From Lachnospiraceae bacterium (GTDB lineage Bacteria; Bacillota; Clostridia; Lachnospirales; Lachnospiraceae), in NCBI GenBank assembly GCA_017446045.1, contig JAFSRP010000049.1, positions 1 to 64,000 on the forward strand: DNA of 64,000 bases, read 5' to 3'. A program made the translations under genes and the position numbers. The notes below the pieces were generated by a model that saw nothing but the letters and a program-made list of their open reading frames with translations, made no database searches and was not told the origin of the DNA. Positions 20,463 to 64,000 of this stretch are shown here, piece after piece; position 1 is the stretch's first letter, and every line of letters starts with the position of its first letter.

Positions 20463-20493
20463 ACTACAACTGCAGTCATGCAGTACTTCGTGG

Positions 20494-40288: not shown

Positions 40289-41200
40289 TCAGCTGACATG
40301 CTTCGCATTTGTGCAGTGACGGATAATGTAATCGCGCACAAAATCAAAGTCCGGTGCTTCCGCATAGACCTGGTTGTGGAGCAGCGTCTGGTTGACATAA
40401 ATCGTATGACGATGCCGGACGGATTTTACTGTTTTCACAAGCTCAAATTCGGAGAAGGAACTGCTCCGGGTCGCGGCCAGCATACCGGTACCTGCCATCC
40501 CGATCCTGCCGGCGGCAAGGCCCGCTGCTGCTGTCAGCCATCCGATCGCCTCAGCCTTTTCAAACTGTTTAGCCATCTGCCTGTGCTCAATGCCCCCTTC
40601 ATCCATCGTAAAGAGCACCATATATCTCCAGCCATACATCTTTGCAACGATCAGATATGCAACCACAGCAATTGCCATCAGCACTACCAGAAGGAGCAGG
40701 AAGCCACGGAAGAAGCTGAAGGCATCTTCTGCATTCCAGTATTTGAAATCCCCGCTGAATAAAGTGACCAGCAGCATAAAAGCGATAACAATGCCGAAAG
40801 ACAGGGCCATCACCTTCCAGATCGTGACAAGCAGCGTCGGATTCCGAAGCATATCGAACTCATACGTCCAGCGATATTTGCCGTCCGGGCAAAGATAGAC
40901 ATTTTCTGTCACTTTCTGGCCTTTGATCTCCTCTTCACTGTTGATCTCTCCGGCGGCTTTTTTACGCTTCCCGCCCTTTTTGACGGAAGGCTTATCGATC
41001 ACCTCGCCCTCATCCGGCCCTTCTTCAACGGCCGCTTCTGTAATTTCCGCTTCCGTCAATGCCGTTTCTTCGGCAGGCGTTTCTGCCGCAATGCTTTCGC
41101 CGGCCTCCATATCGGGTGCAGATCCTGCAGGTGCACCGCAGTAATCACAAAATTTCGCATCCTCGGGAATCTCCTGTCCGCAATTCTCACAAAAGATCAT
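40289..41200 (-). CDS. Zinc-ribbon membrane protein, 303 residues
   Basis: The N-terminus is a double-knuckle zinc ribbon (FCENCGQEIPEDAKFCDYCG). A Glu/Ala-rich linker follows (about 30-85). Then come two membrane segments (TIWKVMALSFGIVIAFMLLV and FFRGFLLLLVVLMAIAVVAY), and a C-terminal beta-rich cytoplasmic domain (YMVLFTMDEGGIEHRQMA, SVRHRHTIYVNQTLLHN), perhaps a PH-like fold. GGGAGG lies upstream of the ATG. It is the last gene of the locus. The domain order is common in Firmicutes proteins of unknown role. Confidence 0.8.
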   Translation of the reverse strand: MIFCENCGQEIPEDAKFCDYCGAPAGSAPDMEAGESIAAETPAEETALTEAEITEAAVEEGPDEGEVIDKPSVKKGGKRKKAAGEINSEEEIKGQKVTENVYLCPDGKYRWTYEFDMLRNPTLLVTIWKVMALSFGIVIAFMLLVTLFSGDFKYWNAEDAFSFFRGFLLLLVVLMAIAVVAYLIVAKMYGWRYMVLFTMDEGGIEHRQMAKQFEKAEAIGWLTAAAGLAAGRIGMAGTGMLAATRSSSFSEFELVKTVKSVRHRHTIYVNQTLLHNQVYAEAPDFDFVRDYIIRHCTNAKHVS

Positions 41201-41256
41201 AGTTTGATTACCTCCCTGTCTCAGTATATCAAATAAAAAGACTGATTGTCACGTCT

Positions 41257-41751
41257 TTACATAATTTTGGCTCCGCAGCTGCGGCAGAACTTTGCGCCGG
41301 GATTCAAGGGCTTGCCGCAGGAAGTGCAGAAACGGCTTCCTGCAGGCTGTATCTTTGGCCGGGCTTCTGCTTCTGCCTGCGCTCTTGCCTGTGCCTCGGC
41401 CTCCGCAGCTGCATGGGCTTCCGCTTCGGCAGCTTCTGCAGCGGCTGTATCCCGGTCGAAACGAAGTTCTGCTCGCAGGCGCTCCATCTCTTTTTCTTTT
41501 TCTTCTCCCATGACCGGTATGAAAATCCAGCGGGTCAGATACTCATAACGCGTCGTCAGGCCAATGGCGCCTTCCGCTGAGACCACATAGAAATCCTGTT
41601 CCGGCAGCTCCTCTTCATCTCCGCCTTCTTCGAGGGCAAGTGCATACACATCCCGGGCATTCATGCCTTCTTCCGTGCCTGCCAGTTTCCAGGTCATACA
41701 TACCGGCATAGCCCCCGCAAGCGCACTCATCAGTGTCTTATAATGTTTCAT
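41257..41751 (-). CDS. Small protein with a C-terminal zinc ribbon, 164 residues
   Basis: The first 100 residues are a mixed-fold domain (MKHYKTLMSALAGAMPVCM, YALALEEGG, YYVVSAEGAIGLTTRYEYLT-like). Then comes a strongly charged Ala/Glu helix (AEAEAHAAAEAEAQARAQAE) and a C-terminal zinc ribbon (FCTSCGKPLNPGAKFCRSCG). No membrane segment is seen. It lies between the 1370- and 303-residue genes, with 14 bases to the former's end. Its zinc ribbon resembles those of the 1148- and 1072-residue proteins, so it may be a soluble partner or adaptor. Confidence 0.75.
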   Translation of the reverse strand: MKHYKTLMSALAGAMPVCMTWKLAGTEEGMNARDVYALALEEGGDEEELPEQDFYVVSAEGAIGLTTRYEYLTRWIFIPVMGEEKEKEMERLRAELRFDRDTAAAEAAEAEAHAAAEAEAQARAQAEAEARPKIQPAGSRFCTSCGKPLNPGAKFCRSCGAKIM

Positions 41752-41765
41752 AAGCCCTCCTTATC

Positions 41766-44700
41766 TCAGCTTTTCTTTCTCCTGAAAGCGGTCCCGCTTC
41801 CCGGTTTATCGGCAATCGAACCATATTTTTGCTGTGCTGCTTCCAAGTTATTCATAAACGTCTGATTTTCTGCCACCTTGATGTCCGAAACGATATCTGT
41901 CAGGTCATCTCCGACGGTGTTGTTGAACAGATCGTTGATAAGATTGGTACCGGCACTGCTCCAGTTCTCCACATTCGCGATCTTATCATTCATCGCCTTC
42001 TGATAGGCCAGCTGCTGTTTGCCCAGGGTCTTTCCTGCAGTGTCGCCGGCCATGTTCTTCCAGGAACCCATCTTGTCAAAAGACTTGGAGGTCTTTCCCA
42101 GCTGGTCTTTCAGGCCTTTTGTCGCAGAATCGGAAGCTTTTTTTCCAAGAGCGCCGATTCCCTGTCCGATCCCGTAGGTCATCGTGCTCTTGTAAGCGGT
42201 CTTTTCCATATCCCGCGCGATCTCAGCCGGCGATTTTCCTTCCAGATAGCTTTCCAGACCGGTCTTCACCATATCACCGCCCACAGCCATGCCGATGCCG
42301 TCGACTTCATTCTGCAGTACACCGACCGCGCCTTCCACAGTACCCTGTGCGACAGCAGTCATGGTGTCGTAGACATCCTTTCCGTTCGCCAGGGATTCCG
42401 AAAGCTTTGTCATGCCAGGTTTTGCAAAGGTATAAGCGTTCTTGATCGCCTTGCCCGCAGGACCGGTCACTTCGCCAAGGGCGTTGACCGCTATATCAGA
42501 GGCAGTCTCTATCTGGGAAGCTGTTTTCTCTGCCGCCCCAAGCCAATCATCCTTTGCCATCTGTCGGCCGTATTCCTCGGCTTCCTTCTGGCGGTTTTTC
42601 AGGATATCCTTTTTGATGCCCTTGATATCATCGACACTCCTGCCGTACTGTTCGGCGACTCTTTCCCTGTACTGTTCCTGCCGCAGCTTTTGCTGATCTT
42701 TCTTCCAGGCTTCGGATGTATCCGTTTTTCCGGTCTCGCGTTCACGATCCCATTTCGCCTGGTTTTGCTGATGCTGTTCTTCAGCCCAGCGCCTGCCGGT
42801 CGCAGCGTCCTGACTCAGCGTGGAGGCATTTTCCATACGGGTATCATAATTCTCCCGCAGCAGGGATTCTCCGTACTCAAAACCTGATTTTTTACTCCGA
42901 TACTGCGGTTCCCCGGTATCCGGATCAAATCCTTCCAGATAGTAGGTCATCCGCTCCCCGGTCGCCGGGTCATTATAGCTGATATCCCCATCCGCGTTTT
43001 TATACCAGCCCTTCGGAAGCGGATTGTTCCAGTCATAGGGACCGACAGGGGGCTTTTCTTCCTCAGACAGATCTTCCTGCTCCTCATAATCTCCCCTGAG
43101 ACCATCCTCACCTTCTCCGGAGCCGTCATAGTCCGGTCCTTCACCATTCGGACCACCCGAAAGTCCTCCACCTGCACCGCCACCAAGAGTGCCTCCAACA
43201 AACCCGCCGCCGAACAGCATGCTGATAAACCAGCCGATAAAGGTTCTCGTCGCGGAGTTAAAGGGATCGGCATGATCCTCCCAGTCATCATAATACTGAT
43301 GGAGATCATAATAATCACCTGGATCAAACGGCTGAGGCTGGTTCCCGGAATTCGGATCATTCCCAGTATCATCTTCCATCCCGTCATAACCTGCTGATCC
43401 GCCGTTATCGTCATAATCGTCATACAGGTTGCCAAACAGGGATCCTCCGATGTTGCCGGGGTTACCGGCACCGGAAGCATTTCCCGCAGAGGATGCCCAC
43501 ACAGGCTCAGACCATTCAATGTATATCGGCTCCTTTGCGAGCGCCTGCAGCGCCTGTTCGGGATATCCGTTGAAGTACGCAAAAAACTGATCCTTGTATT
43601 CATCCACTTCGGGCCTCTCCGGCCTGCCGTTTCTTCCTTGCCTCGTATCGATCCTGCCTTCGATTTTTACCGTAATATTCAGGTACTGATACGGAAGTTC
43701 CGGAATCATGCGGTACAGAATATACTGGTTTCCATATCCATCGACATATGAGGCCCCGTATTCCGCTTCCACAGAATCCCCTATTGTATGAACGTATTTC
43801 GCATAAACATGCGTATTCTCATCAATATCAAACTCGTCCAGTTCTTCTTCCCTGCCTCTGAAAAAGTTTCCCAGGGAATATCCGAGGTAACTGTCCTGCT
43901 CGCGTGCCAGTGTATTCTGTATACTCTGCTGGATCTGTTCCTCCGGTGTTTCTTTCTTTATCGGATCATAGGATCTGCCGATCCCCCAGTATATGTCGCG
44001 CCCGGCATACAGTTTCCACCAGGAATGGATATATACCGGGTCATATGTGTATGGTTTTCCGTTATCGTGGTAAAGAAGAAAATCCGTGTAATAATCAAAA
44101 TCAGATTCCGCCCAGCCTTCCTGCATCGGCCCGCAGGGAGTTCTGTCATCCGCCGTCACCACAAGCTTTCCATTGGGATTAAAGCCCCAGTCATTATCGT
44201 GCCACTCTTCTCTGTAATGCCATCTCGGGTAGGTAGCGCCCTCGGGGAAGTAACTCTTTACCACTTTCGGGAGCCTCATATAGAAACGTACATCCTGATG
44301 TACGATCTCCCGGTTGTAGTTTTCCGTGTCGAGCACCGAATAACGAAGCCCGTCCCAGCTTGCATTATAGTCAACAAGTCCCAGAACGTCTCCCCACTCG
44401 CTCCGGCTTCCCACTTCGCTCCAGTCATAATCCTTGGAGATTCTCAGCTTATAGCGGGGATCTTTCATATAGGATTCAAAATCCAGTCGCTCTCCCTGCA
44501 TCCTGCCCTCTTCTTCAAGGCAGATACTCTTCAACTGCAGGGCAAGCGTAAAGCCAAGGCCGGTATCCACTGTGACCGCCTGGGGATAATCGTTATTTAC
44601 GACCTTATCCCATATGACAGGACAGTTTTCCACATACTTATCCTGCTTTAACTCATTGTCTTCTCCCGCATATTGCTGGTACTGCACATCCGCCTTCATC

Positions 44701-45878
44701 AGGTTGCTGCCGGAAGGAGCTCCGGTAAAGCGTACACTGACCGCGTAGAAAACATTCTCTAATTCCGGATCCGAAAACATTACCCCGTAGTCTGTCTCTG
44801 CATCCTTGGACAGATCAATGATAAAGGTGTCTGTTTTTGAAAGCTCGATCGGGAGCTTTGTCGTATCCGTATACGCTTCCGGCGCCACACTGATCATGAG
44901 CGGCTTGTCCTGCATCAGATGGGGATACAGTTCCGCGATATCCTTTGCTTCATATTTCTTCCACGGATCCGACCAGACCTCCATCGCATGTGCGCTGAAT
45001 GGAGTTGCAGCCAGGATACCGGATATAATAGTACCTGCCAGCAGGAACAGGACAAAATGATTCAGTTTGTCGTTTTTCTTTGTTTTTCTTTGTGAAAAAG
45101 CAGTTTTGCTCTTCTTTGGTTTTGCATCGGAGGGAGATCTATTGCCTTTTCCAAAAAATGAAAGGATAATACTGACAACGAGCAGGATCAGCCCAACCCA
45201 TACACAGGGCCTGAACGGCAGCAGCGTCAATGCCACTGCCAAGGTGAAACCGATCGTTAGTCCCGACAGGATCCTGTCCACGGTGATGCGTGAGGGTGTT
45301 CTGCCTCTGCTGAACGTCTGCGCCGCTCTGAAGAGGAGGCCCGTCATGAAGCCGCCCTTCGTGCCTATGTTCTTAAGCAGCATGATGATGGCCACGATCC
45401 CCACCATCGCTTCCTGCATATCCTGCCGGCTGTTCATGAATCCGTAGAGAAGCAGGGCCGCACCTGTGCCCCCTGTTAAGGGAGAGGCTTCCTTAAACCC
45501 CTGTACTGCAGCACCCCTGAAAAGCCCGGCAATACCGCCGGCTACGCCTGAGAAAGGCTTCTTTCCCTGAAAGAGCGGAACGATCATCGCATTTAAGAAA
45601 GCGGCAATAACTACCTTGCCCACGATACCGCCCGCGGCTGCCAGGAGGCCGCCGTACAGACCGCCCTGGGCATAGGTGAGGAAGCTCAGGATCCAAAGGG
45701 GAAGCGGAAGCTCCCAGAAATTGGACCCGACGATTCCAAGCACTAGCCATATGACGCCCAATACGATCGTCGGAAGCAGCTGTTTCGGATTTTTCAGGAC
45801 GGCAAAACTCTGCCGGAGATAGTCCCGCAGGTATGCTCCCAGTCCGGGATATGCAGTTGAACCATTATTCTGCTTCAT
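41766..45878 (-). CDS. Giant multi-domain membrane protein, copy 1 (1370 residues)
   Basis: The N-terminus (about residues 1-245) has five to seven membrane segments, e.g. TIVLGVIWLVLGIVGS and IGFTLAVALTLLPF. A further segment at about 276-296 ends with SAHA, like a signal cleavage site. A large beta-rich region (about 300-880) probably lies outside, followed by a Gly-rich hydrophobic stretch (WFISMLFGGGFVGGTLGGG). The C-terminal 424 residues start with PYDWNNPLPKGWYKN and are helical, charged and Gln-rich. The N-terminus is almost identical to that of copy 2. No known family. It has a weak ribosome site (AGGGTGA). Confidence 0.82.
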   Translation of the reverse strand: MKQNNGSTAYPGLGAYLRDYLRQSFAVLKNPKQLLPTIVLGVIWLVLGIVGSNFWELPLPLWILSFLTYAQGGLYGGLLAAAGGIVGKVVIAAFLNAMIVPLFQGKKPFSGVAGGIAGLFRGAAVQGFKEASPLTGGTGAALLLYGFMNSRQDMQEAMVGIVAIIMLLKNIGTKGGFMTGLLFRAAQTFSRGRTPSRITVDRILSGLTIGFTLAVALTLLPFRPCVWVGLILLVVSIILSFFGKGNRSPSDAKPKKSKTAFSQRKTKKNDKLNHFVLFLLAGTIISGILAATPFSAHAMEVWSDPWKKYEAKDIAELYPHLMQDKPLMISVAPEAYTDTTKLPIELSKTDTFIIDLSKDAETDYGVMFSDPELENVFYAVSVRFTGAPSGSNLMKADVQYQQYAGEDNELKQDKYVENCPVIWDKVVNNDYPQAVTVDTGLGFTLALQLKSICLEEEGRMQGERLDFESYMKDPRYKLRISKDYDWSEVGSRSEWGDVLGLVDYNASWDGLRYSVLDTENYNREIVHQDVRFYMRLPKVVKSYFPEGATYPRWHYREEWHDNDWGFNPNGKLVVTADDRTPCGPMQEGWAESDFDYYTDFLLYHDNGKPYTYDPVYIHSWWKLYAGRDIYWGIGRSYDPIKKETPEEQIQQSIQNTLAREQDSYLGYSLGNFFRGREEELDEFDIDENTHVYAKYVHTIGDSVEAEYGASYVDGYGNQYILYRMIPELPYQYLNITVKIEGRIDTRQGRNGRPERPEVDEYKDQFFAYFNGYPEQALQALAKEPIYIEWSEPVWASSAGNASGAGNPGNIGGSLFGNLYDDYDDNGGSAGYDGMEDDTGNDPNSGNQPQPFDPGDYYDLHQYYDDWEDHADPFNSATRTFIGWFISMLFGGGFVGGTLGGGAGGGLSGGPNGEGPDYDGSGEGEDGLRGDYEEQEDLSEEEKPPVGPYDWNNPLPKGWYKNADGDISYNDPATGERMTYYLEGFDPDTGEPQYRSKKSGFEYGESLLRENYDTRMENASTLSQDAATGRRWAEEQHQQNQAKWDRERETGKTDTSEAWKKDQQKLRQEQYRERVAEQYGRSVDDIKGIKKDILKNRQKEAEEYGRQMAKDDWLGAAEKTASQIETASDIAVNALGEVTGPAGKAIKNAYTFAKPGMTKLSESLANGKDVYDTMTAVAQGTVEGAVGVLQNEVDGIGMAVGGDMVKTGLESYLEGKSPAEIARDMEKTAYKSTMTYGIGQGIGALGKKASDSATKGLKDQLGKTSKSFDKMGSWKNMAGDTAGKTLGKQQLAYQKAMNDKIANVENWSSAGTNLINDLFNNTVGDDLTDIVSDIKVAENQTFMNNLEAAQQKYGSIADKPGSGTAFRRKKS
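45140..45850. repeat. Near-identical repeat, copy A (N-terminal coding part of the 1370-residue gene)
   Basis: This stretch matches 50015-50725 (offset about 4875) at the nucleotide level with only scattered differences, including third-codon positions, while the rest of the two genes differs much more. It points to recent duplication or gene conversion of the membrane module. Confidence 0.85.
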
Positions 45879-45945
45879 ATAGTCACCCTAAGCCCGTATC
45901 GGAATGTATTATGAATCACTCCAATATTCCGGTTGATTTTTCTGC

Positions 45946-46878
45946 TTATGGTTTAAACGTAAACTCCGCCTCTTTCAGCAGCTGGCCGCTGACATTGTCA
46001 TAGATCCGGCAGACGCCCGTCATCATATCCAGCGGCAGGACGTCTTCGAGCGGTTCCCATTCCAGCTCATAATAGAAACTGCCTTTGGATCCATTCTGGA
46101 ACGTATATCCCTCTCCCACTCCGCGTGTGTCGTAAACCGAACCGTCCACATTCTTGCGGGCGACTTCATATGCTTTCCCGTTGAACTTTACATCACCGGG
46201 AACGATACGGATGTCCCTGCCGGATGTATTTTCCACGTAGAAGCGGAGCGCGCTGCTGGTATCGGTGTAAGCAACGGAAAGGTCTGCTGTGGCAAGACTG
46301 ATGCCGTCCGCATTGTAAAACTCATTTGTTTTATACAGGAACTTCGGCGTATCTGCCTTCTTTGCCTTATTGGTCTTGATCGTGATCTTTCCGGAGCGTG
46401 CTGTTTCCGCCATGGAAGATGCATCATAAGCTGCCAGTTCCAGTTCGATCTCTCCCACGTAGATGATCTGCATATCGTAGAGACCGCTGCGGTCGAAAAG
46501 CAACACGCCGTCCGTGGAGGCGCCCGGCGCAGCCTCGATCTTCAGTTCCGGCTGCACTGCTGCACCGCCGTTTGCGGATAATGCGGTACAGCGCAGGATC
46601 TTTGCACTGCTTCCATCATTCTTCACCTTGAGATAGAGAGCATCCCTCTCCTGGCTTCCGCTGGTATAACGTCCCGTACCTGTTACCGATACAGACAATC
46701 CGTCCGCGGACCATATCTCCTGTGTTTTGATCTTCGCGCCGCCAAGCGGATCCCATCTTCCGTTATCGGAAGGAAATATCATGCGGTATGCTATAAATAG
46801 AATGATCGCAGCAAAGACCAGAAATCCCAGTCCAAGCCACAGAGCAGTCATAGGTCCCTTTTTTTCCTTCTGTGCCAT
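45946..46878 (-). CDS. Single-pass membrane protein with two beta-sandwich-like repeats, 310 residues
   Basis: The N-terminus has one membrane segment (TALWLGLGFLVFAAIILFIA) and no zinc ribbon. The outside part seems to hold two similar beta-rich domains: GLSVSVTGTGRYTSGSQERD with YLKVKNDGSSAK, and GISLATADLSVAYTDTSSAL with RFYVENTSGRD. It starts with GGAGGT. It lies between the two giant genes. I cannot name its family; it may be a spacer or bridging protein of the complex. Confidence 0.72.
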   Translation of the reverse strand: MAQKEKKGPMTALWLGLGFLVFAAIILFIAYRMIFPSDNGRWDPLGGAKIKTQEIWSADGLSVSVTGTGRYTSGSQERDALYLKVKNDGSSAKILRCTALSANGGAAVQPELKIEAAPGASTDGVLLFDRSGLYDMQIIYVGEIELELAAYDASSMAETARSGKITIKTNKAKKADTPKFLYKTNEFYNADGISLATADLSVAYTDTSSALRFYVENTSGRDIRIVPGDVKFNGKAYEVARKNVDGSVYDTRGVGEGYTFQNGSKGSFYYELEWEPLEDVLPLDMMTGVCRIYDNVSGQLLKEAEFTFKP

Positions 46879-46928
46879 CGTTCCTACCTCCGTAAATCAC
46901 AGTAAATGGCCTCGTTTTTTCTCCGTTT

Positions 46929-50750: not shown

Positions 50751-50832
50751 ATGTCCTCTTTTTTCTCACCATGGTAAATGCATGCGCTGCCATCACGGCG
50801 CGGGGATCATCTGTCCGGCAGGCTCAGCAGTC

Positions 50833-52125: not shown

Positions 52126-52156
52126 AAATACCTCCTGATGGATCTTATAAATCCCG

Positions 52157-55100: not shown

Positions 55101-55375
55101 CCGCCTTCAGAACCGGCATATTGGCCGGCAGCAGTTTCTTGTGCAGCAGTCACAGGACCTCTCCCACCCGTACCGGAAGATGGCCCAACTTTCCATCCGC
55201 ACTCCCTGCAAAACTTAGCACCGGGACTCAACGGCTTTCCACAGCTGCGGCAGAACTTTGGTGTATTCACTTCGATCTTTTGCGGTCCTTCCTTAGGAAC
55301 ACTCTTTCCGCAGCCACTGCAGAAAGCTGCACCCTCCGGAATCTCCGAACCGCAGTTACGGCAAAACCTGGGCAT
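52157..55375 (-). CDS. Zinc-ribbon membrane protein, 1072 residues
   Basis: Two zinc ribbons open the protein (FCRNCGSEIPEGAAFCSGCG and FCRSCGKPLSPGAKFCRECG). A membrane segment follows at about 97-117 (VIAVVTALAVFVCFVYPGYV), then a Gly/Ser-rich spacer. The outside part is beta-rich; residues about 530-575 are hydrophobic (WGTAAAAVPVLGKALVVIG). The C-terminal 190 residues (from 882, GTWEIESAMKDFHMPMFDGL) are shared with the 1148-residue protein. It has GGGAGGG before its ATG. No known family beyond the ribbons. Confidence 0.8.
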   Translation of the reverse strand: MPRFCRNCGSEIPEGAAFCSGCGKSVPKEGPQKIEVNTPKFCRSCGKPLSPGAKFCRECGWKVGPSSGTGGRGPVTAAQETAAGQYAGSEGGKTRKRASFKPVIAVVTALAVFVCFVYPGYVRTKLFPGGTAHITETEGTGNGSGGTGIGSGNTGANPVSSGSGTPVYDGPKAELVIPASEYSLTGGADQIVLNQDNSPGAVALLSVRYDTKETSNAPEQKAEITTETGQASFDVAGGKLEVEIFPWNLENETDELIIRELPVKTDPESGQELVTYDISLASGQHTFQTSNMIRIPRTAAPDQDGSVIWFDEEQGRWQPAPFEYSEDGTCYEVYLDHFTDVTELKGDKNAAYYLGQEKDTPFIYNYVKGLPPEMQPIKVTASSLAGYLDTKKDLSHFLYDGVGDAALPGMVADLYGMDTALDAAMGLTNEGLGLPYNAKLVSTRLGNRYFGKDAAGGKLSAIGLTLVMGKVLSQYWHGGSFKDALDNNAKDLIAASLQTMGEYAPKIINWAMRSKIFKPLASIGTKWGGALLTRLGWGTAAAAVPVLGKALVVIGTVVAVWSVTDYILGKFPPETPFDLPQMAYREYLIYPRTVRGYENLSIQYTKGFNDAIISIVNNSDPARPDQMMEEIAVLYDDFFNGFFNLSFQEQAGWYEKIFYRYTANSDRAISTKEVPYTGISESKKKEYIELYSAYLHKTTDIVLQRKIRDDYEKMKANLLSYLQTELVPAMNARLEFLAIDEAIAAKTREDKHMTFDKSRYSRYKTGKSLDEYASEMKIRFFTEDEDTGERKFITMPLFLPADGAWEDYSAKRFQPYPRENSDLIYECTAYHFLQIGFPDGVLFVGDNTPAMPDIPVKFSMPTPNRDGSYMIVLKLANEDIYGTWEIESAMKDFHMPMFDGLVSLQGQIMGNLGGQAPQEAVEQAQNYANQYYQAENQVAQSVAKGKMIIRPTDHESLVDVSVKFEGEAPLQEYDGSYNKQTMELILSPKETLYSFTGASEERNAENNAYHQKIESGTYDLRDFGLVPGIELKFSVGTDTEHRAMTFTGESALDNEYVTYTSVLSGTKISDEY

Positions 55376-55393
55376 TCAGATCCCTCCCGATCA

Positions 55394-57421
55394 TTATCGT
55401 ACCATCGCGACCTCACCGATCTCCTTCTCGCCGTTATAGACAGTGCCGAGGGCATACTGCATACCGCCGGCTTCCACAAAGTCGTAGACCATCATATTCA
55501 GGCTGCTTGTCTCACTGGTGACATCAAAATATCCCGGATCGTCATCCCAGTCACCGTTCATGACGATGTTGTCCGGCACATTCAGCTTTTTGGACTCTAT
55601 ACTGCCGGGATCACTGACCATGAACTCGTGTGTTTCCGTCGGATGCAGAAGGACGGTCACCTTATATCCCATGTACTGGACTTCCGCATCGCAGACCATG
55701 ATCCGGCACTGGTCCTCCCCATCGACCGGGGTCACTACATTAAGGATGCCCTTCCACTTGCCGCCGAGATCCTGCAGTTCCGTGAGCGGTCTGCCGTCGA
55801 TCGGGAATTCATCGTTAAAGTACCAGTTAAAGTCATCCAGGCTTACTTCTCCGGATGCCGCAGCGTTGCTGCCGCTGCTGCCATCGGACTGCTGCGTCTG
55901 CGTTACAGCCTCTGTTGCGCCTCCGGGTATACCCGCAGGGAGATCGCTGCTTTCTGTTGTAATATTGGCTGATGCACTTCCTGTCGGCTGAAGGCTGACG
56001 GGAACAGGCACATCCGAAGTACCCGGCATCACCGTCAGTGAGGGTCTGCTTCCGTCCATGATCCAGATCTTTTCTCCATCCGGACGGACGAGTGCCATCA
56101 TGTACTCTTCCTTATTCTCGTTTACATATCTGCCACGGCCGATTGCAGCATCCTGTGTATACTCAAAGCTGAAGCTTGCAAACGGATAACTGCTGTCCTC
56201 ATTTTCCATGCGGTTGTAATAGAATTCCTCATGGGTACACACGGCGTCGGAAAGTCCGCTTTCATCTATGACATTCCCTTCTCCGTCAATACCCAGATAC
56301 CAGTCGATCCGAACATCGACGTAACCTTTTTCATACTCATCCTCAGGCTGGTAATTGTCTACATACAGGTTGCAAAGATGTGCTTCAAACCCTCTGCCGG
56401 CTGTCCGGGCATCCCGGAAGATATAACACTTCCAGCCACCAAGATACTCCCTTGCGTCATATTCCGGATCACGATAATCACCCACGGTTCTGTCCGCAAA
56501 TACCGAGGGGCTGGTATACCAGGCAAAATCCTCCAGGGTCGGCTGTTCGGAAGTATCGAGAAGTTTTTGGATCTCCATCCCTTCCATGTTCTCGAAGGTA
56601 TGGTTCTCGTGCTTTTCCTGTACGTTTAACCGGAAAGCTGCATTATGCGGCTGGGAGAACTGGTCCGTCAGCCAACAGGCGATCACGACCTCGCGGGTCT
56701 CCTCCGGCACCTGATATAGCAGCCAACGGTCCAGTTCCCCACCATTGTAGGGCTCCGCTGAACAATAGTATTGGTCTGCATCCGAGCGGATCTCGGATAC
56801 CGGCATATCCGTCACCGGACGGAGCATGCTGTCGGTACCGCCCGCAGCGCTTAAGTCCACGAGATTGCCATATTCATCCTTCGCCTCGATAAGATAGTAA
56901 TGTTCCGGCGCAGGAAGTTCCTTTACCATACCGGCATCGTAATCGGTAAGCTCCAGTTCAACGGATATGTATTTCATGCCGTCAGAGAGCCCGGTTTTGG
57001 AATCGATCCAGTCGGAAGCTTCCTCCGCACTGATATATAACTCTGTTCCGTCCATCTGGATCATGCTGCCGGCGTCATAGATTGCATTCGGATCCGCCAG
57101 GGAAACGATGCCGTCGGGCATGTCGACCCCGTACTGGGATGCAAATGCCTGTGCCGCCTGTCCCATGGAATCGGAACCGCCCGCACTGCCGGCACCGGTA
57201 TTTGTCGAACCGGAACCGGAAGCAGAAATTCCGCTGCCGGAGCCGGCAGTGCCCGGGGCATCGTTCGATACTGCGGTACTTTCGGAACCGGAACCACCGG
57301 ATCCATTGCCGCCGGATGCAGCTTCCTTGCCCCCGCAGGCTGCCAGAATGATGACCAATGCGAAGACCGGCAATACAGCTGCAACTGTCCAGACCCTATC
57401 AGATAATGTATGCTTTTTCAT
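55394..57421 (-). CDS. Large lipoprotein with two copies of a shared domain, 675 residues
   Basis: A lipobox (VIILAACGG, Cys29) marks a lipoprotein. A Gly/Ser-rich spacer (30-90) follows. A domain at 100-260 (MIQMDGTELYISAEEASDWI) precedes two copies of a domain of about 150 residues: 295-447 and 527-675. Each starts with a D-F-x-W-Y motif, has GGWK or GGKWK, and ends in ALVR or AMVR. A third copy occurs in the 408-residue protein. The GGGAGG ribosome site lies in the end of the upstream gene, 4 bases away. Confidence 0.8.
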   Translation of the reverse strand: MKKHTLSDRVWTVAAVLPVFALVIILAACGGKEAASGGNGSGGSGSESTAVSNDAPGTAGSGSGISASGSGSTNTGAGSAGGSDSMGQAAQAFASQYGVDMPDGIVSLADPNAIYDAGSMIQMDGTELYISAEEASDWIDSKTGLSDGMKYISVELELTDYDAGMVKELPAPEHYYLIEAKDEYGNLVDLSAAGGTDSMLRPVTDMPVSEIRSDADQYYCSAEPYNGGELDRWLLYQVPEETREVVIACWLTDQFSQPHNAAFRLNVQEKHENHTFENMEGMEIQKLLDTSEQPTLEDFAWYTSPSVFADRTVGDYRDPEYDAREYLGGWKCYIFRDARTAGRGFEAHLCNLYVDNYQPEDEYEKGYVDVRIDWYLGIDGEGNVIDESGLSDAVCTHEEFYYNRMENEDSSYPFASFSFEYTQDAAIGRGRYVNENKEEYMMALVRPDGEKIWIMDGSRPSLTVMPGTSDVPVPVSLQPTGSASANITTESSDLPAGIPGGATEAVTQTQQSDGSSGSNAAASGEVSLDDFNWYFNDEFPIDGRPLTELQDLGGKWKGILNVVTPVDGEDQCRIMVCDAEVQYMGYKVTVLLHPTETHEFMVSDPGSIESKKLNVPDNIVMNGDWDDDPGYFDVTSETSSLNMMVYDFVEAGGMQYALGTVYNGEKEIGEVAMVR

Positions 57422-57424
57422 GAC

Positions 57425-60400
57425 TTAGTTTCCTCCCAATGATGTCGTCTCGTCCGAGATCTTGGTACCTCTCAGGTCGGCTTTCATTTTTACAAACTGG
57501 TTGTCCAGCTCTGTCATACCGGCAAAGGTCAGAACAGGATGCTTTGGATCGTTCGGATCAGTCTCCTTTGAGATCAGAAGCTCCATACCTGCAGCCAGTC
57601 CAAAGTCTGCCAGGTTATAAGTCCCGCTTTCGATCTTCTGATGGTAGGCATTGTTCTCCGCGTTCCTTTCTTTCGAAGCGCCTTCAAATGCATAGTCCGT
57701 ATTCGTCGGGTTCAGAGTAAGCCTCATGGTCGTCTTGTCGAAGGGACCCTCAAAAGTCTGTACCGGTCCCTCTTCATACTTCACGGCAGCCGCTACCAGG
57801 CCATCCTTCGTTCCGGGGCGCAGGACCATCGTCCCCCTGCTCACCTGCTTCGCATACTGACCCTCGATTTGGAAATACTGGTTGACATAATTTTGTTCCT
57901 GCTCGAGCGCCTCCTGACTGGCCTGGCCGCCGAGGCTTCCTATGATCTGCCCCTGCTGCTGTACGAGGCCGTCCAGCATAGGCATGTTGAACTCCTGCAT
58001 AGCGGCTTCAACCTCCCATGTGCCGTAGATATCAGGTTCGATCTCGGACCAGGGACCGTAAACATATTCGTCTCCAATACAGATATACTCTCTCACTTGG
58101 GCATGGAAAACCGGTTCTTCCCCGCTGTAGCCGCCCGTGAAATCGCCGGTATCCAAGGTGATCTTTTTCTCCCAATCCTCTACGGGATATAGCTCCTCGA
58201 TCTCAAACTCCTCTTCGTCGTCACGCACGATCTTAAGTTCAAGGCCGATGTCCATTTCCTTCAGATAATACTCTTCATTGCGGGCATCCCTGGCCAATTG
58301 GTCCGGGTAACCCCTCAAGGTCACATAAAGCAATTCTTTATCCACGTTGACCTCCGGCTCCGCAGGCTTGAGGAGCAGGTAGGTATAGACGCCGTTTTCA
58401 CCGAGCCCGATGTCCTTAAGATCGTAAAGCTGCGTGTAATCCAGCGTCCTGAACGGTTTCTCATCATGGTAAAGCACTTCGCCGGCTTTTATGATACCTG
58501 CGATTGACAGATCTGCCGACTTATTCTGCTCCTCCTTCTTTAAGACAGACGCCATGGGCCGGGGCCGGTATTCGTGAAGGAAATCCGATTTATCCTCAGG
58601 CGTATAAGGCACCGTCAGGATCCCGTAACTGTCCACACCCTCGTCGCTGCGATGGATCCGGTGTGTTCTGAGGAAAGGATAATTGATGTCAGGCGAAGAC
58701 GCCGGCTCAGAATACTTTGAGACCGGTTTTTTCGGGTCAAGATCCGGAAGATCAAGGATGTCGCAGAGCTTTGTGTCCGTCACCGAATATTTATCGATCG
58801 GGATCCGGTTCTCCCGCATCCAGCGCAGGAATTTCTCGCAGGCCCTGGGGTACAGAAAATCAGAGATCCCATAGGCTTTCTTGATGGTTTTCGAAAATGA
58901 CTGGAAGGCCTGATAATTCAGCATGATCCAGTTTGTGCTATGCCATTTATAGTACTTGTTCAGGTATTCGATGAAATAGCCGAGAAGATAACCGGAATCC
59001 TGCAGATGGTCGGAAGGATTCTGGTCAAAATCCCAGGCCAGGTACTCTTCCCACTTCCTGCCGGCGGCGTAGGTAAGAAAAGTCTCCCAGTCTTCCGGCT
59101 TATCAAGATCCAGACCACCGATGACCTTGAAATAGCCTTTCTCATTCATGTAGCGGTATGCGTCTGGTTCCATAGCTGCGGCGACCGCCTCAAACAGACG
59201 GACGTTCGAACCCCGTCCGATGACTTCCCCAGTGTAATACTCATGCTGGCAGGCATGCAGGATTTCATGCGCAAGCGTGAGCGGCAGCGTATCCTGATTG
59301 ATTGCGCTCTGATCGCCTACGTTTGACTGAAAGATCACGCCGAGGGACACGACGATATAGGGATTGCGCATATAGACCACCTTCTGTTCGGCGTCTGCGC
59401 CTGTATTCAGTGCCTGCAGATAGATATTAATGGTATATGAGTGCATCCTGACCTTGTAAATGGGTGAATTCAGGAACTCATACGCATAACGGGCGGACTG
59501 GGCGACCTGTTCGATGATATCCGGAAAGATCTTCTTGGCTCTCAGATTACTTTCCAGGGTTTGAACTACAGTGTCAGTCTTTACTGTTTCACAGAAATTT
59601 GTCAGCACCTGGCGGTTCCGTTCCGCCACAGCCTCATCATAAGTCCGACCCTTGGCATCTTTTCCGTTTTCATATTCATCCGGGTTAGGCCTGGGAAATC
59701 TATGATTTGCCTTTTTAAGCAGCTTGAGCTTTTCTTCTTTCAGTTCTTCGTAGGTCGCATCTACTGCTCCCAGTTCGTCCTTCGCCCAGATAATGTTGAA
59801 TTTGTCGCCTTCTTTATGATAACTGCCTGTTTCCTTTCCCTTATAGTATCGTTCGATTTCCGTCGCATTATAGTAAAGCGTGTAAGCAGTATAGCCCAAC
59901 GTGATCACGATGGCTGCGACACCTTCGATGCTGTTCTGGCGGGACTTATAGGAAAGCACACCATCGGTGACTTCGGAGGCATATTCATAGTATTCTCCGT
60001 TTTCATCGATCCTGAACGCTACCATTGAATCATACATTTCCTCCGGCACACCCAGTGTACTTAAGTCGACACTGACATTGTAATAACCCGGAAGGTACTC
60101 GTCTGCCTTCAGTCCCGCATCCAGGTCAAACGCCATCAGCAGCGCGCCATTTTTCTCCTCCAGTGTTTCGCTGACGCTGTCGAGTTCTCTTCCGGATAAA
60201 CGGCTGACCTTGAATTCCCGGTCATAGTCCAGGGCATTCTCCTCTGCGGAGATCTGAAGACCCTGCCACGGATTCAGCTCAAAAGCTTTGGAATTTCCGA
60301 CTATCGTCGGGACCTCTTCCACTTCCTCGAGGGTGATCCCCTCCAGTTCATCGCTGATACCGGAACCGTTTGAGCCGTTCTGCCCGTTCCCTCCGGTATT

Positions 60401-60871
60401 GCCGCCATTGCTTCCGCTCCCGGTATTCCCGCCGGAAACGGCATGGGTCTCCGGTCCGCCAAAGAGTTTTGTCCGAACAAAGCCCGGATAGACGAAACAA
60501 ACAAAGACTGCCGCTGCAGTGACCAGGGCGATCAGGGGCTTCAAAGAGCGCGGCAGGGAAGCCGTCTTCTGCGGACGGCTCCCTTGTGGTGCATTCTGTG
60601 TATATTGCTGAGTTCCGGTGTGCGGAGCCTGCTGTCCTCCCGGAGCCGGCGCTGCCTGCTGTGCCTGCTGCACTGCTATCCCCACCTTCCAGCCGCAGGA
60701 ACGACAGAATTTCGCGCCGGGGGCCAGCGCTTTGCCGCAGGACCGGCAAAACTTCGGCTGCTGTGTGCCTGACTTTGGAGGCTCAATTTTCGGTACGGCT
60801 TTACCGCAGCCTTCACAGAAAGCCGCATTTTCCCGCAGTTCTGTTCCGCAGTATCTACAAAATCTGGCCAT
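57425..60871 (-). CDS. Zinc-ribbon membrane protein with an HExxH metallopeptidase-like motif, 1148 residues
   Basis: The start at 60871 (GGAGG upstream) gives M-A-R-F-C-R-Y-C-G. Two zinc ribbons occupy residues 1-65. After a Gln-rich linker comes a membrane segment (LIALVTAAAVFVCFVYPGFV). The middle part has HEILH at 535-539 with Glu561 (LFEAVAAAME) as a possible third ligand, the pattern of a gluzincin-type metallopeptidase. The nearby context (LPLTLAHEILHACQHEYY) is family-like. The C-terminal 199 residues (from 950, GTWEVEAAMQEFNMPMLDGL) match the end of the 1072-residue protein. The overall family is unrecognised; it may act on wall or surface proteins. Confidence 0.82.
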   Translation of the reverse strand: MARFCRYCGTELRENAAFCEGCGKAVPKIEPPKSGTQQPKFCRSCGKALAPGAKFCRSCGWKVGIAVQQAQQAAPAPGGQQAPHTGTQQYTQNAPQGSRPQKTASLPRSLKPLIALVTAAAVFVCFVYPGFVRTKLFGGPETHAVSGGNTGSGSNGGNTGGNGQNGSNGSGISDELEGITLEEVEEVPTIVGNSKAFELNPWQGLQISAEENALDYDREFKVSRLSGRELDSVSETLEEKNGALLMAFDLDAGLKADEYLPGYYNVSVDLSTLGVPEEMYDSMVAFRIDENGEYYEYASEVTDGVLSYKSRQNSIEGVAAIVITLGYTAYTLYYNATEIERYYKGKETGSYHKEGDKFNIIWAKDELGAVDATYEELKEEKLKLLKKANHRFPRPNPDEYENGKDAKGRTYDEAVAERNRQVLTNFCETVKTDTVVQTLESNLRAKKIFPDIIEQVAQSARYAYEFLNSPIYKVRMHSYTINIYLQALNTGADAEQKVVYMRNPYIVVSLGVIFQSNVGDQSAINQDTLPLTLAHEILHACQHEYYTGEVIGRGSNVRLFEAVAAAMEPDAYRYMNEKGYFKVIGGLDLDKPEDWETFLTYAAGRKWEEYLAWDFDQNPSDHLQDSGYLLGYFIEYLNKYYKWHSTNWIMLNYQAFQSFSKTIKKAYGISDFLYPRACEKFLRWMRENRIPIDKYSVTDTKLCDILDLPDLDPKKPVSKYSEPASSPDINYPFLRTHRIHRSDEGVDSYGILTVPYTPEDKSDFLHEYRPRPMASVLKKEEQNKSADLSIAGIIKAGEVLYHDEKPFRTLDYTQLYDLKDIGLGENGVYTYLLLKPAEPEVNVDKELLYVTLRGYPDQLARDARNEEYYLKEMDIGLELKIVRDDEEEFEIEELYPVEDWEKKITLDTGDFTGGYSGEEPVFHAQVREYICIGDEYVYGPWSEIEPDIYGTWEVEAAMQEFNMPMLDGLVQQQGQIIGSLGGQASQEALEQEQNYVNQYFQIEGQYAKQVSRGTMVLRPGTKDGLVAAAVKYEEGPVQTFEGPFDKTTMRLTLNPTNTDYAFEGASKERNAENNAYHQKIESGTYNLADFGLAAGMELLISKETDPNDPKHPVLTFAGMTELDNQFVKMKADLRGTKISDETTSLGGN

Positions 60872-60961
60872 ACCTGTCCTCCCAACGATCACCGCATCAT
60901 CATCGAAATCGGGCAGCCCGGGCTTTCGAAGTCCCGGTCTGCCCACTGCTGTTGATAAGCT

Positions 60962-62188
60962 TTACTTTGCACTACGCATCAGGGCGATGCTGTCCTTTTC
61001 ACCCGAGATCCAGGTGAATGTACCGACGGCGTACTCTGTCTGTCCATCCTTTGAGAGGTAGAAAGCGTCAAAGTCGATCTTTGAGTCATCCGTCATGGCT
61101 GTCGCTGTTCCCTCAAGGTCATCATACGTGCCCCGATAGACACTGCTGCCTTTCTCTTCTATCGTCTCCCCGTTCGGCTCGACAAGGTATTTCCAGTTCA
61201 GGGTGATATTGAACTTACCGCCGGCCGCATCGATATTTGCATTGAGATAGCGCTCGACATCAGAACCGTAGACGCCCTTCTTCGTACAGATGAATGCCTT
61301 CCAACCACCGTTCAGCGCTTCCTGCAGGTCTGTCATCCTGGTCGCGCGGTTCGGATCAGTAATGACCTGGGCGTTGCCGTATCCGGTCTCGTTGACGTAG
61401 TCGAGGAACCAGTCAAACTCCGTCGCATAGGCAGGCTCATCAGTAGAGAGCTTTTTGGCGATCGCTGCCATTGCATCGCCCGTGGGTGTCCCCGCAACAG
61501 AGGATGTCGCGCCGCCGGATTTATTCTGCGGGGCATTCGGATCATAGCTGCCGTCCGCGCCCACATAGTAGCCGTCCGGTGTATAGGCATTGCTGATCAT
61601 ATATCCCGTTTCATCCACGTAGTAATAGACACCGTTGTCATTGATCCAGCTGTTCTTGACCAGATCTCCGTCCTTCTCGTAGAACCATACGCTGGCGATC
61701 TGGATCCATTTACCGCCGGTGACAGTAGGAATGCCCGAATTCGTACCCGCAGCGGAGGGTGAGCTCCCGTTCTTCTCATTCTTCTTTGCCAGGGCTTCTG
61801 CCTTCTTGCCGAGGGCAGCGGTACTCGTGCTGCCGCCAGTCTCGCTGCCGGTGCTCTGTCCGGTGCTGCCCAGGCTCCCGCTCGCAGTGCCGATATCCTC
61901 GGCTTCAGTCTCTGTCTGCTGGGTAGCCGGCACCTGTTCGTAAGCTTCTGTCTGTGTCTCGAGATAGTCTTCGGTCAGTTTATGGACCAGGAAGTCTCCT
62001 TCGATTTTGATCTCCGCATCAGCCATGCTCATGGTCATCGCGAAATCGCCGGCGATCATTTTGTCATCTCCGTTCACACAGTACGCTCCGATGTGGTCCA
62101 TCTTGACATGTCCGCCTCCGGACTTCTCATCTTCGAAAGATTTGTCGATCTTGGCATGATACATACCGTTCGAGGTGGTCGTGATCAT
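60962..62188 (-). CDS. C-terminal part of a frameshifted zinc-ribbon protein, with wall-binding-like repeat and shared domain
   Basis: As annotated here it is 408 residues from an ATG at 62188, but reading upstream in the same frame continues into a plausible protein (FDSDDYDDPEEFTPAEIDAL) back to about 62262. The N-terminus shows no ribosome site or signal. Residues 158-217 look like a wall-binding repeat (WFYEKDGDLVKNSWINDNG), and 255-405 are the third copy of the domain found twice in the lipoprotein, ending in IALMR. It most likely forms the second half of one protein with the gene at 62188-63081, which has lost one base. Confidence 0.72.
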   Translation of the reverse strand: MITTTSNGMYHAKIDKSFEDEKSGGGHVKMDHIGAYCVNGDDKMIAGDFAMTMSMADAEIKIEGDFLVHKLTEDYLETQTEAYEQVPATQQTETEAEDIGTASGSLGSTGQSTGSETGGSTSTAALGKKAEALAKKNEKNGSSPSAAGTNSGIPTVTGGKWIQIASVWFYEKDGDLVKNSWINDNGVYYYVDETGYMISNAYTPDGYYVGADGSYDPNAPQNKSGGATSSVAGTPTGDAMAAIAKKLSTDEPAYATEFDWFLDYVNETGYGNAQVITDPNRATRMTDLQEALNGGWKAFICTKKGVYGSDVERYLNANIDAAGGKFNITLNWKYLVEPNGETIEEKGSSVYRGTYDDLEGTATAMTDDSKIDFDAFYLSKDGQTEYAVGTFTWISGEKDSIALMRSAK

Positions 62189-63081
62189 CAGCGCGTCGAT
62201 CTCAGCAGGCGTAAACTCCTCCGGATCATCGTAGTCATCAGAATCAAATCCATGATGCCGACAAGTGAAAAGATAATGTCCCAGCCTCCATCCTCTTCGA
62301 TTCTCAGATTACAGTTCCTCGGCGTACTCAGCGCCTCTTTCTTGATCTCCGGGAAATTATCCGGCACGTTGGGTATGTCCTCATAGCCTTCGATCACAGT
62401 CATCTGGATCTCGCCCTTGTAGTCACCGATCAGGTCGGTCAGCATAGCATCTGTCTTGATCTGGGCTCCTTCGGGGACCTTGATCTTGGAGAGATCACCT
62501 GTCGTCACACCGCCGCTGATCGCGTTCATCCCCTGCTCAAGGAGAGCTGCCTGCTCTGCCGCAGTCAGACCCCCCTGGGTGCCGACAGCTCCGGCAGTGC
62601 CGGAGTCGGATGATCCGTCCGAAGTACCGTCCGTGCTTTGGCTGACGGAACCACCGGATGTACCGCCGGCTGCCATCGTAGTCTCTGCCTGGATCGTAGT
62701 GCTTTCCGCTTCGGTGCCCGGCTCTTTCTTGCCTCCGCGCAGCGCAAACACAGCTGCGACCGCAGCCAGTGCCACTACACCGCCGATCAGGGCGATCTTC
62801 GGAAAACCGCCGCCGGGACGGGACGGACCGGAAGGCGCAGCAGGAGCCGGTTTTCCTGTATTTCCTGTAAACGCAGGACCCGAAGGATTATCCTGATAGA
62901 CAGGCGCTGGTGAAGGCGGTATGTTCTGTGCAGGTTCCGGTCTATATTCCGGTTGCCCCGGTCCTTCTGCATATCCCTGTCCTTCCGCCATTCCCAAAGG
63001 CAACACCTTTGCACCGCAGGCTTCACAAAATTTCGCGTCGTCGGGGAGCGGAGCTCCGCAATTCTCACAAAACTGACTCAT
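62188..63081 (-). pseudogene. N-terminal part of the same zinc-ribbon protein, broken by a frameshift
   Basis: Starts at 63081 with AAGGAGG. A zinc ribbon (FCENCGAPLPDDAKFCEACG) is followed by a Pro-rich linker, a membrane segment (IALIGGVVALAAVAAVFAL), a Thr/Ser/Gly spacer and a beta-rich domain (LIGDYKGEIQMTVIEGYEDI). After about residue 274 the frame turns into an implausible Leu/Arg tail (MDLILMTTMIRRSLRLL), whereas the other frame continues sensibly, so one base is missing near 62236-62264. The full protein would be about 706 residues. It is the first gene of the locus. Confidence 0.75.
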
Positions 63082-63454: not shown

Positions 63455-63533
63455 TAACGGGTAACCCACGTCTTCGGAAAGCCGTTAAGGTACCCGGAAA
63501 GCCTCTGTGATATCAGAAGGGATATATAGCTTT

Positions 63534-64000
63534 ATGGAAAACAAACTGGATTATCTGATGACTTTGACCGATACGAAGAACAGTGTCCTGAGCAAAGCCA
63601 TTTCCTTTGATCCCTCTTATATCAGCAGGATCCGCAGGGGAAAACGCAGCATTCCGCTGACCCCTCAGTTCGTACGGGCTGTCGCAGGTTACTTCGGGAG
63701 GAATATAAAAGATGCCAAACAACTGGATGCACTGGCGGAAGTACTATGTCCCGGAGAGACGCTGCCGGATTCGAAAGAAGCATTGGAGCAGATGCTCATC
63801 GAATGGCTGAGCAACAAAAACGAAAAATCTCCGGACTATGTCCGGGACTTTCTTGACGGGTTTTCTCAGGCAAGCAGCCTCACCGGAAAAGAGCCGGACG
63901 CTCACTCCGCTTCTTCGTTGTCCGGGCAGGACCCCTTTCCCGCGGCTGATCCGGTTCTGTCCGGAACCTATGTTGGAAAAGCGTCCTCCGAAGCCTGGTT
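63534..64000 (+). CDS. HTH-type regulator, N-terminal part (runs off window)
   Basis: The first 155 residues are open to the window edge. The start at 63534 has AGAAGG at a rather long distance. Residues 1-55 look like an XRE-type helix-turn-helix (VLSKAISFDPSYISRIRRGK). The next part is helical and then Ser/Pro-rich (SSLSGQDPFPAADPVL). It is transcribed away from the zinc-ribbon locus, so it may regulate it. The C-terminus lies beyond the window, so I cannot say whether a sensor domain follows. Confidence 0.72.
   Translation, partial: MENKLDYLMTLTDTKNSVLSKAISFDPSYISRIRRGKRSIPLTPQFVRAVAGYFGRNIKDAKQLDALAEVLCPGETLPDSKEALEQMLIEWLSNKNEKSPDYVRDFLDGFSQASSLTGKEPDAHSASSLSGQDPFPAADPVLSGTYVGKASSEAW

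What the first reader, a model, noticed from the sequence alone, without database searches (positions are those of the whole stretch)
40289..63081. A 23-kb locus of zinc-ribbon and giant membrane proteins, a candidate undescribed envelope system
All genes lie on one strand with short gaps, each preceded by its own ribosome site. They encode four to five proteins headed or tailed by CxxC-CxxC zinc ribbons, two giant paralogues with a multi-pass N-terminus, a large lipoprotein, and two single-pass proteins. Several share domains with each other, as expected of parts of one complex. No named system I know has this set. Seen in sequence: gene order, ribbons, membrane segments, shared domains. Inferred: a common complex at the cell envelope; function unknown.
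Basis: partly seen in the sequence, partly recalled or inferred. Interest (0 to 1): 0.88.

Follow-up and report, generated by a model that had tools for sequence, protein, structure and literature searches.

The report
Modular zinc-ribbon and giant-protein envelope system
A gut-associated bacterium carries a cluster of unclassified membrane and surface proteins whose core, a multi-pass membrane protein joined or adjacent to a giant protein that probably spans the membrane, recurs in scattered relatives and looks like an undescribed cell-envelope machine.

Summary
The observation mostly holds: one-strand genes at 40289-63081, five zinc-ribbon proteins, two giant paralogues, a lipoprotein, shared domains. 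Corrections: A and B are one gene split by a frame slip; F is a clostripain-type protein without the peptidase domain; K belongs to a wider family (26 of 392 genomes). The locus is two modules, A/B-C-D(-E) and F-giants-H-J-K, on separate contigs in a relative. The core is a multi-pass module (mp) paired with a giant: of 20 mp copies, 5 lie inside a giant ORF and 15 beside a same-strand gene of 600+ aa (14 with a signal-peptide-like start, against 13 of 283 control genes). mp occurs in 8 of 392 genomes of the order and 7 of 358 of the phylum, one unconfirmed. No library scanned names the giants; six narrow paper searches found no description. My reading, function inferred only: an envelope-spanning receptor or scaffold whose parts may dock through cytosolic zinc ribbons. 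The link of J and the regulator to giants is weaker.

The parts
63507..64000 (+). Start of divergent HTH regulator (528 aa, runs to contig position 65093)
   Evidence: relatives next to giants in G390 (4.8e-47) and G417 (8.9e-40), and a partial one (contig end) in G004; most other relatives are not near giants
60962..63081 (-). A/B: one zinc-ribbon / TM / choline-binding-type protein, split into two ORFs (62188-63081 and 60962-62188) by a frame slip near 62240
   Evidence: zinc ribbon 2.8e-9, Choline_bind_2 1.3e-8; relative L159_3090 is one ORF of 773 aa covering both; B has no ribosome site
57425..60871 (-). C: double zinc ribbon, one TM, large ectodomain with HEILH, C-terminal A10 domain (ORF open from 60946; likely start 60871)
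   Evidence: HExxH kept in the L159 and L160 relatives
55394..57421 (-). D: large lipoprotein with two copies of the A9 domain
   Evidence: relatives 53-57% in G004 and G016, next to C
52157..55375 (-). E: double zinc ribbon, TM, ectodomain, A10 domain shared with C
50833..52125 (-). F: Gly-rich N-terminus, one TM, ectodomain homologous to the C-terminal domain of clostripain-family proteins, without the peptidase domain
   Evidence: 6.5e-50 to a C11 protein of G000:C15
46929..50750 (-). G: fused giant 1 (mp module 1-255, internal signal-peptide-like segment about 267-285, ectodomain, weak TM about 795-813, A1 domain 857-1240)
45946..46878 (-). H: single-pass protein
   Evidence: relatives L019 (7.6e-145) and L015 (1.4e-67) in giant loci of the same genus
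41766..45878 (-). I: fused giant 2, paralogue of G
41257..41751 (-). J: adaptor-like protein without TM, conserved 90-aa N-domain (A3), variable linker, C-terminal zinc ribbon
40289..41200 (-). K: zinc ribbon, two TM, conserved C-domain (A4); member of a wider family

Best explanation
The locus encodes parts of a modular cell-envelope assembly. Shown by sequence: (1) a multi-pass membrane module (mp; about six segments, 4 to 7 by a simple scan), with an N-terminal zinc ribbon in 14 of 15 stand-alone copies, is paired with a giant protein by fusion or as a neighbouring gene; (2) giants of the commoner type (type 2) have a signal-peptide-like start, a 200-450-aa ectodomain, one TM with basic residues after it, a hub domain and a helical-looking tail; (3) in varying sets the pair is accompanied by a small zinc-ribbon protein (J), single-pass zinc-ribbon proteins with ectodomains of several kinds (A9 domain, A10 domain, HExxH, transglutaminase), lipoproteins with A9 domains, and in four loci an HTH regulator. 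Inferred: the giant displays its ectodomain outside and its tail inside, mp holds it in the membrane, J joins on the cytosolic side, and the zinc ribbons serve as interchangeable docking tags that bring ligand-binding and enzyme-bearing subunits to the core, so that the whole acts as an envelope-spanning receptor or scaffold. What it binds or processes is not known. In the window two modules, A/B-C-D-E and F-K, lie side by side.
For: mp-giant pairing: 20 mp copies, of which 12 come from the mp profile in the order (the window's own two among them), 5 from the wider mp profile in the phylum and 3 from the search with whole G. 5 are inside a giant ORF. The 15 separate ones all have a same-strand gene of 600+ aa beside them with a gap of 39 nt or less, 7 with 4-nt overlaps; 14 of the 15 also meet the signal-peptide-like criterion of the control, which 13 of 283 control genes met. 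14 of the 15 partners carry a shared giant domain (T2 in 12, A1 in 2); 7 of the T2 partners and 1 of the A1 partners were rows of those models, so 6 are independent. Fused and separate forms change 3 times on the mp tree. Type-2 TM, found by the scan in 11 of 12: net basic after it in 11 of 11, net acidic before it in 9 of 11. Ribbon in 14 of 15 separate mp copies. A J relative was found in G752 in a locus picked by mp alone (8.5e-24). Transglutaminase on a zinc-ribbon protein in the G004 giant locus, 5.8e-14.
Against: No structure could be computed, so folds, topology and contacts are unproven. Modules 1 and 2 are on different contigs in G004. J: of the 5 of 392 genomes with a match, G000, G268 and G314 had supplied rows of the profile; the two new ones, G074 and G345, show J beside zinc-ribbon genes but no giant in the stretch fetched (the G345 contig ends there). 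Regulator: 37 of 392 genomes; it adjoins giants in the loci that supplied the profile (G000, G004, G390, G417), and none of 15 further regulator loci shows mp, J or a giant domain. K mostly occurs without giants. The A9 copies found were all rows of its profile. Type-1 giants (as in the window) show no basic residues after their weak TM, so their tail could be outside. The fused mp copies have no ribbon of their own, nor does G683's mp. Fused giants of G314 and G226 match neither the A1 nor the T2 model, and L127's giant neither, although G314's tail matches G's by BLAST (2.8e-12). A weak mp match in G610 (1.5e-8) was not confirmed by the scan and has no giant beside it. That zinc ribbons dock is not tested here.
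Confidence: 0.42

Rival explanations
1. Two independent envelope systems (A/B-C-D-E and F-giants-H-J-K) happen to be neighbours in this genome and do not work together.
For: A/B-C-D stands on G004:C13 (13,234 bp) and G016:C94 (5,854 bp), away from the giant cluster on G004:C59. In G004 the regulator diverges from the F-giant side with only a 149-aa ORF between.
Against: Both modules carry similar zinc ribbons; A9-domain proteins also lie in giant loci of G268 and G390; G004 and G016, the only other genomes found with giants in the genus, also have module 1 (the 22 other genomes of the genus were not searched for module 1).
Confidence: 0.25
2. A membrane-stress system that works like the PspA-YdjGHI type: zinc-ribbon membrane proteins anchor a cytosolic scaffold that protects the membrane under stress.
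For: In B. subtilis deletion of the membrane proteins YdjG or YdjH abolished membrane recruitment of PspA and YdjI (PMC8581546, passages); YdjG has two zinc ribbons (PMC11237479, passages). SHOCT-like hit at the end of the G226 giant (1.8e-4, below cut-off). Some relatives of the regulator sit with zinc-ribbon, LemA-like and DUF2207-like genes (last two by eye).
Against: No PspA, PspC or band-7 match in any of the 11 window ORFs of the locus.
Confidence: 0.15
3. A contact-dependent antagonism (polymorphic toxin) system in which the giant tail is a toxin.
For: Large surface-type proteins with paralogues; patchy distribution and cross-family clustering of mp.
Against: No toxin or immunity family at a curated cut-off. 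Type-1 tails are conserved between paralogues and genomes, not swapped: A1 identity to G is 28-67% over seven relatives. The gene after giant I is J, a conserved zinc-ribbon protein.
Confidence: 0.08
4. A metal-acquisition or metal-sensing envelope system.
For: Metal-transport-type genes (iron(III)-type ABC, P-type ATPase, ZnuA) in 6 of 21 giant or zinc-ribbon contexts as I grouped them, against 3 of 40 control regions. ArsR-type and P-type ATPase genes beside the window's regulator.
Against: The query families were chosen after seeing them, contexts were grouped by eye (one of the six, G610, has no confirmed mp), regions differ in length, and 15 of the 21 lack such genes; 2 of 15 regulator-only loci have them. 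The ABC binding proteins match only general solute-binding families in Pfam.
Confidence: 0.07

Closest known systems
PspA-YdjGHI membrane-stress operon (Bacillus subtilis)
   Same: Operon in which membrane proteins, one with zinc ribbons, recruit cytosolic partners to the membrane (PMC8581546 and PMC11237479, passages only)
   Different: No PspA or band-7 match in the window locus; I know of no counterpart there of giants, mp, J or the lipoproteins (recalled)
TcaA-type zinc-ribbon membrane proteins (Staphylococcus)
   Same: TcaA is a 454-residue zinc-ribbon protein (PMC10611510, passage); N-ribbon, one TM, ectodomain as in A/B, C, E is recalled for TcaA
   Different: Ectodomains of A-E reach no Pfam cut-off apart from choline-binding repeats in B; partners differ
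Clostripain-family (C11) membrane proteins
   Same: F matches their C-terminal 300 aa (6.5e-50) and has a similar Gly-rich N-terminus (the N-terminal match alone is not significant)
   Different: F has no Peptidase_C11 match
SHOCT-tagged proteins
   Same: Short terminal tag on many unrelated architectures, as the zinc ribbons are here (PMC3581485, passages)
   Different: Different domain; in the cited work the authors' first experiments did not support an oligomerisation role

Membership tests
Phage-shock (PspA-YdjGHI) systems | PspA/IM30 coiled-coil protein in the locus | tested here: not met
   Pfam scans of the 11 window ORFs
Phage-shock (PspA-YdjGHI) systems | Band-7/SPFH partner in the locus | tested here: not met
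Phage-shock (PspA-YdjGHI) systems | Induction by membrane stress | not testable with these tools
   needs expression data
Polymorphic toxin systems | Toxin domain at the C-terminus | tested here: not met
   no toxin family at the cut-off; a toxin without a Pfam or NCBIfam model would be missed
Polymorphic toxin systems | Variable C-terminus behind a conserved N-terminus | tested here: not met
   tails of G, I and type-1 relatives align along the A1 domain
TcaA-type proteins | N-terminal zinc ribbon, single TM, extracytoplasmic domain | tested here: met
   A/B, C, E: (hydropathy only; E has a second hydrophobic stretch at 542-560, A one at 268-286 in the stretch around the slip)
TcaA-type proteins | Homologous TcaA ectodomain | tested here: not met
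   no such Pfam match; TcaA itself was not compared directly
Clostripain (C11) family, for F | Peptidase_C11 domain | tested here: not met
Clostripain (C11) family, for F | C-terminal domain of these proteins | tested here: met
   6.5e-50, 2e-45 and 1.2e-38 to proteins of three of eight C11 loci
HExxH metallopeptidases, for C | HExxH kept in relatives | tested here: met
   C 560, L159 617, L160 612 (three sequences only)
HExxH metallopeptidases, for C | Match to a known peptidase family | tested here: not met
   for C; for its L159 relative
Known anti-phage defence systems | PADLOC component with a convincing match | tested here: not met
   only weak JetC matches of G (7.9e-4) and I (0.009); J not scanned

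The most novel reading that the evidence does not exclude
A new, horizontally spread class of bacterial envelope machine: a multi-pass protein and a giant type-I membrane protein form a core onto which enzyme-bearing and ligand-binding subunits are plugged by interchangeable cytosolic zinc ribbons, so that each genome assembles its own variant from a common kit.
Probability: 0.3. Interest if true: 0.85.

Novelty: categorically new. Interest (0 to 1): 0.7.

Why it matters
The giants G and I, mp included, have no convincing family match in four libraries, and the further giants scanned reach no Pfam cut-off, yet every one of 15 separate mp copies is coupled to a giant, across nine families of one phylum when the fused copies are counted. 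That makes a small, testable core for an unknown envelope function. If zinc ribbons are the plug, it could also help explain why many uncharacterised membrane proteins carry one. The label 'categorically new' is provisional: without structures, a remote tie to a known envelope complex is not excluded.

Tried and rejected
Phage or plasmid origin: no relatives of the A1 or A2 profiles in viral contigs, none of G in plasmids, none of F in phages; the other proteins were not searched there. Defence: PADLOC gave only weak JetC matches. Solved structures: no convincing match for G, C or the profiles A1, A2, A3, A9, A10 (best was A1 to a kinesin-like chain, E 0.011). K as a dedicated part: rejected, 26 of 392 genomes, mostly elsewhere. 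Metal link: kept as a weak lead only. A 22,394-aa open frame in G390:C4 probably runs through masked letters (one search shows X there) and was not taken as a gene. Promoter scans gave 14 against 10.2 and 7 against 10.5 in shuffles, terminator scans 18 against 11.5 and 20 against 10.1; I used neither. Composition shows nothing. Six paper searches, all on narrow term sets in an open-licence library, listed no description of this gene set; two searches returned no paper. PMC8581546, PMC11237479, PMC10611510 and PMC3581485 were seen as passages; the other papers only as listings.
Full report
What is there. The window lies in contig C24 (109,613 bp) of a 2.26-Mb, 79%-complete assembly. Eleven ORFs, A to K, fill 40289-63081 on the minus strand. 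Pfam finds zinc ribbons in A, C, E, J and K and choline-binding repeats in B; D, F, G, H and I reach no Pfam cut-off. NCBIfam and PHROGs, given ten of the eleven (not J), add nothing convincing for the giants. A regulator starts at 63507 on the other strand and runs to 65093. The organism is a member of Lachnospiraceae by inference: a genome of the same genus (G004) has contigs equal in length and ORF pattern to records of Lachnospiraceae bacterium RGIG4309 from a roe deer.

Corrections to the gene list. A and B are one gene: in G004 a single 773-aa ORF covers both (37% to A, 59% to B), and G016 has a 70% match to B next to C. One assembly cannot tell an assembly error from a mutation. C probably starts at 60871, where there is a ribosome site. 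F matches the C-terminal 300 residues of a clostripain-family protein of the same genome (6.5e-50), but it has no peptidase domain. I had recalled that resemblance before testing it.

Two modules. In G004 the cluster on C59 has regulator, a 149-aa ORF, F, a giant, J, a zinc-ribbon mp protein, a second giant, H, a 184-aa lipoprotein-like ORF, K and a zinc-ribbon protein with a transglutaminase domain. A/B, C and D lie together on another contig, C13. G016 shows the same trio on C94, cut by the contig ends. The window carries both side by side. A search with G found giants in 3 of 25 genomes of the genus (3 of 61 searched), so the system is accessory. Module 1 was searched only in those three genomes.

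The core pair. The N-terminal 255 residues of G and I form a module, mp, with about six hydrophobic segments (4 to 7 by a simple scan). Its profile matched 8 of 392 genomes of the order and 7 of 358 of the phylum, the own genome counted in both and G610 unconfirmed. With three copies from the search with whole G this gives 20 copies confirmed by a profile scan. 5 of them (G, I, G016:C82, G314, G226) lie inside a giant ORF. All 15 others have a same-strand gene of at least 600 aa beside them with a gap of at most 39 nt, downstream in 13 and upstream in 2 (G151, G390:C26). 14 of the 15 partners have a signal-peptide-like start; that of G417:C36 is over-long as called. Among 283 control genes of 250-420 aa, 13 had such a neighbour within 200 nt; one of the 15 mp proteins (564 aa) is longer than that size range. 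The control genes come from 40 regions that I placed on contigs of genomes that carry parts of the system. 14 of the 15 stand-alone mp proteins carry a ribbon motif; the 5 fused ones do not. On the mp tree the fused state changes three times, and the copy of a same-family genome (G389) groups with three other families at full support, which suggests transfer.

Giants. Type 1 (window, its genus, G268) shares the A1 tail; type 2 (12 of the 15 separate partners) shares a hub domain after a TM. The scan saw that TM in 11 of 12; the net charge after it is positive in 11 of 11 and that before it negative in 9 of 11. By the positive-inside rule (recalled) the type-2 tail is cytosolic. For type 1 the topology is open. 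The fused giants of G314 and G226 and the partner in G583 match neither model, though G314's tail matches G's by BLAST (2.8e-12) and G226's matches that of a type-2 giant (8.7e-13). A distant paralogue group, with a J relative upstream in the copies whose contigs reach far enough, lies beside an ABC transporter in G000:C35, G004:C171, G016:C36 and two Oribacterium records (J was not called by my ORF list in G016:C36).

Companions, with the limits of each test. J's N-domain is in 5 of 392 genomes. Four of the six copies are in giant loci (one beside the distant paralogue), but G000, G268 and G314 had supplied profile rows; the two new genomes (G074, G345) show J beside zinc-ribbon genes and no giant in the stretch fetched. 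An independent case is G752, where J lies in a locus picked by mp alone. K is in 26 of 392, mostly without giants; it does lie in giant loci of G390 and G004, and in G179 beside a large ORF that I read by eye as type-2-like. The regulator is in 37 of 392. It adjoins giants in G000, G390, G417 and, outside that sample, G004, which are the profile's own rows; none of 15 further regulator loci has mp, J or a giant domain, and one has K. The A9 domain is shared by B, both halves of D and proteins of G004, G016, G268, G390, G074 and G000:C58. In three whole genomes only six copies were found, all of them profile rows and all in such loci, so the test shows only that no further copy turned up elsewhere.

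How it may work. Shown: coupling, fusion and shared domains. Inferred: the pair forms a membrane core; J binds on the inside; zinc ribbons dock the varied single-pass subunits; lipoproteins and A9/A10 domains meet the outside; the regulator may control the set. The function (sensing, surface remodelling or protection) is not shown. The best guess is a receptor or scaffold whose outer subunits bind or trim a surface ligand, because HExxH and transglutaminase domains sit on zinc-ribbon subunits.

Known systems. It works somewhat like PspA-YdjGHI, where membrane proteins recruit cytosolic partners, but lacks that family's defining proteins. It is not a polymorphic toxin by the tests run. No paper on this gene set came up in six narrow searches of an open-licence library. 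Structure prediction, the natural next test, was switched off.

Noticed in passing
L017, L020, L021, L041, L042 (one orthologous group), L022, L047: Giants or their paralogues lie beside an iron(III)-type ABC transporter (my reading; solute-binding protein, permease, ATPase) in three separate contexts; Pfam calls the three binding proteins tested only general solute-binding families.
   Followed up: partly
Contig C24:65150-68116 (L023), just outside the window: ArsR-type regulator, P-type ATPase and a short protein read by eye as a heavy-metal-binding domain, next to the locus regulator.
   Followed up: partly
L132:6208-9571 (G610): Weak, unconfirmed mp-like ORF, then a SPASM/radical SAM gene, then a 477-aa protein with an A1 domain (1.2e-17) and the N-terminal motif DFVTNSSS, as if the giant relative were modified.
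   Followed up: partly
L047:3267-8216 (G226): A 1649-aa alpha-2-macroglobulin-like protein directly upstream of the fused giant.
   Followed up: no
L139 (G086) and L141 (G226, contig C25): Relatives of the locus regulator stand beside zinc-ribbon, LemA-like and DUF2207-like genes (last two read by eye).
   Followed up: no
window 16637-22294: Run of secreted proteins around a SipW-like signal peptidase (20494-20982), resembling a TasA/SipW matrix operon; read by eye only.
   Followed up: no
L161 (G000:C58:1830-7764): A third zinc-ribbon locus in the same genome: a secreted protein, an A9-domain protein and a 1147-aa zinc-ribbon protein related to E.
   Followed up: partly
L043 (G268:C1:1424000-1440000): The G268 copy lies between genes that look like parts of an integrative element (a VirD4-like end and a small sigma-like gene; by eye), fitting the patchy spread.
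   Followed up: no
L136:4466-7195 (G196): A relative of the locus regulator adjoins a 909-aa protein with S-layer homology domains, followed by a protein ending in a ribbon motif.
   Followed up: partly
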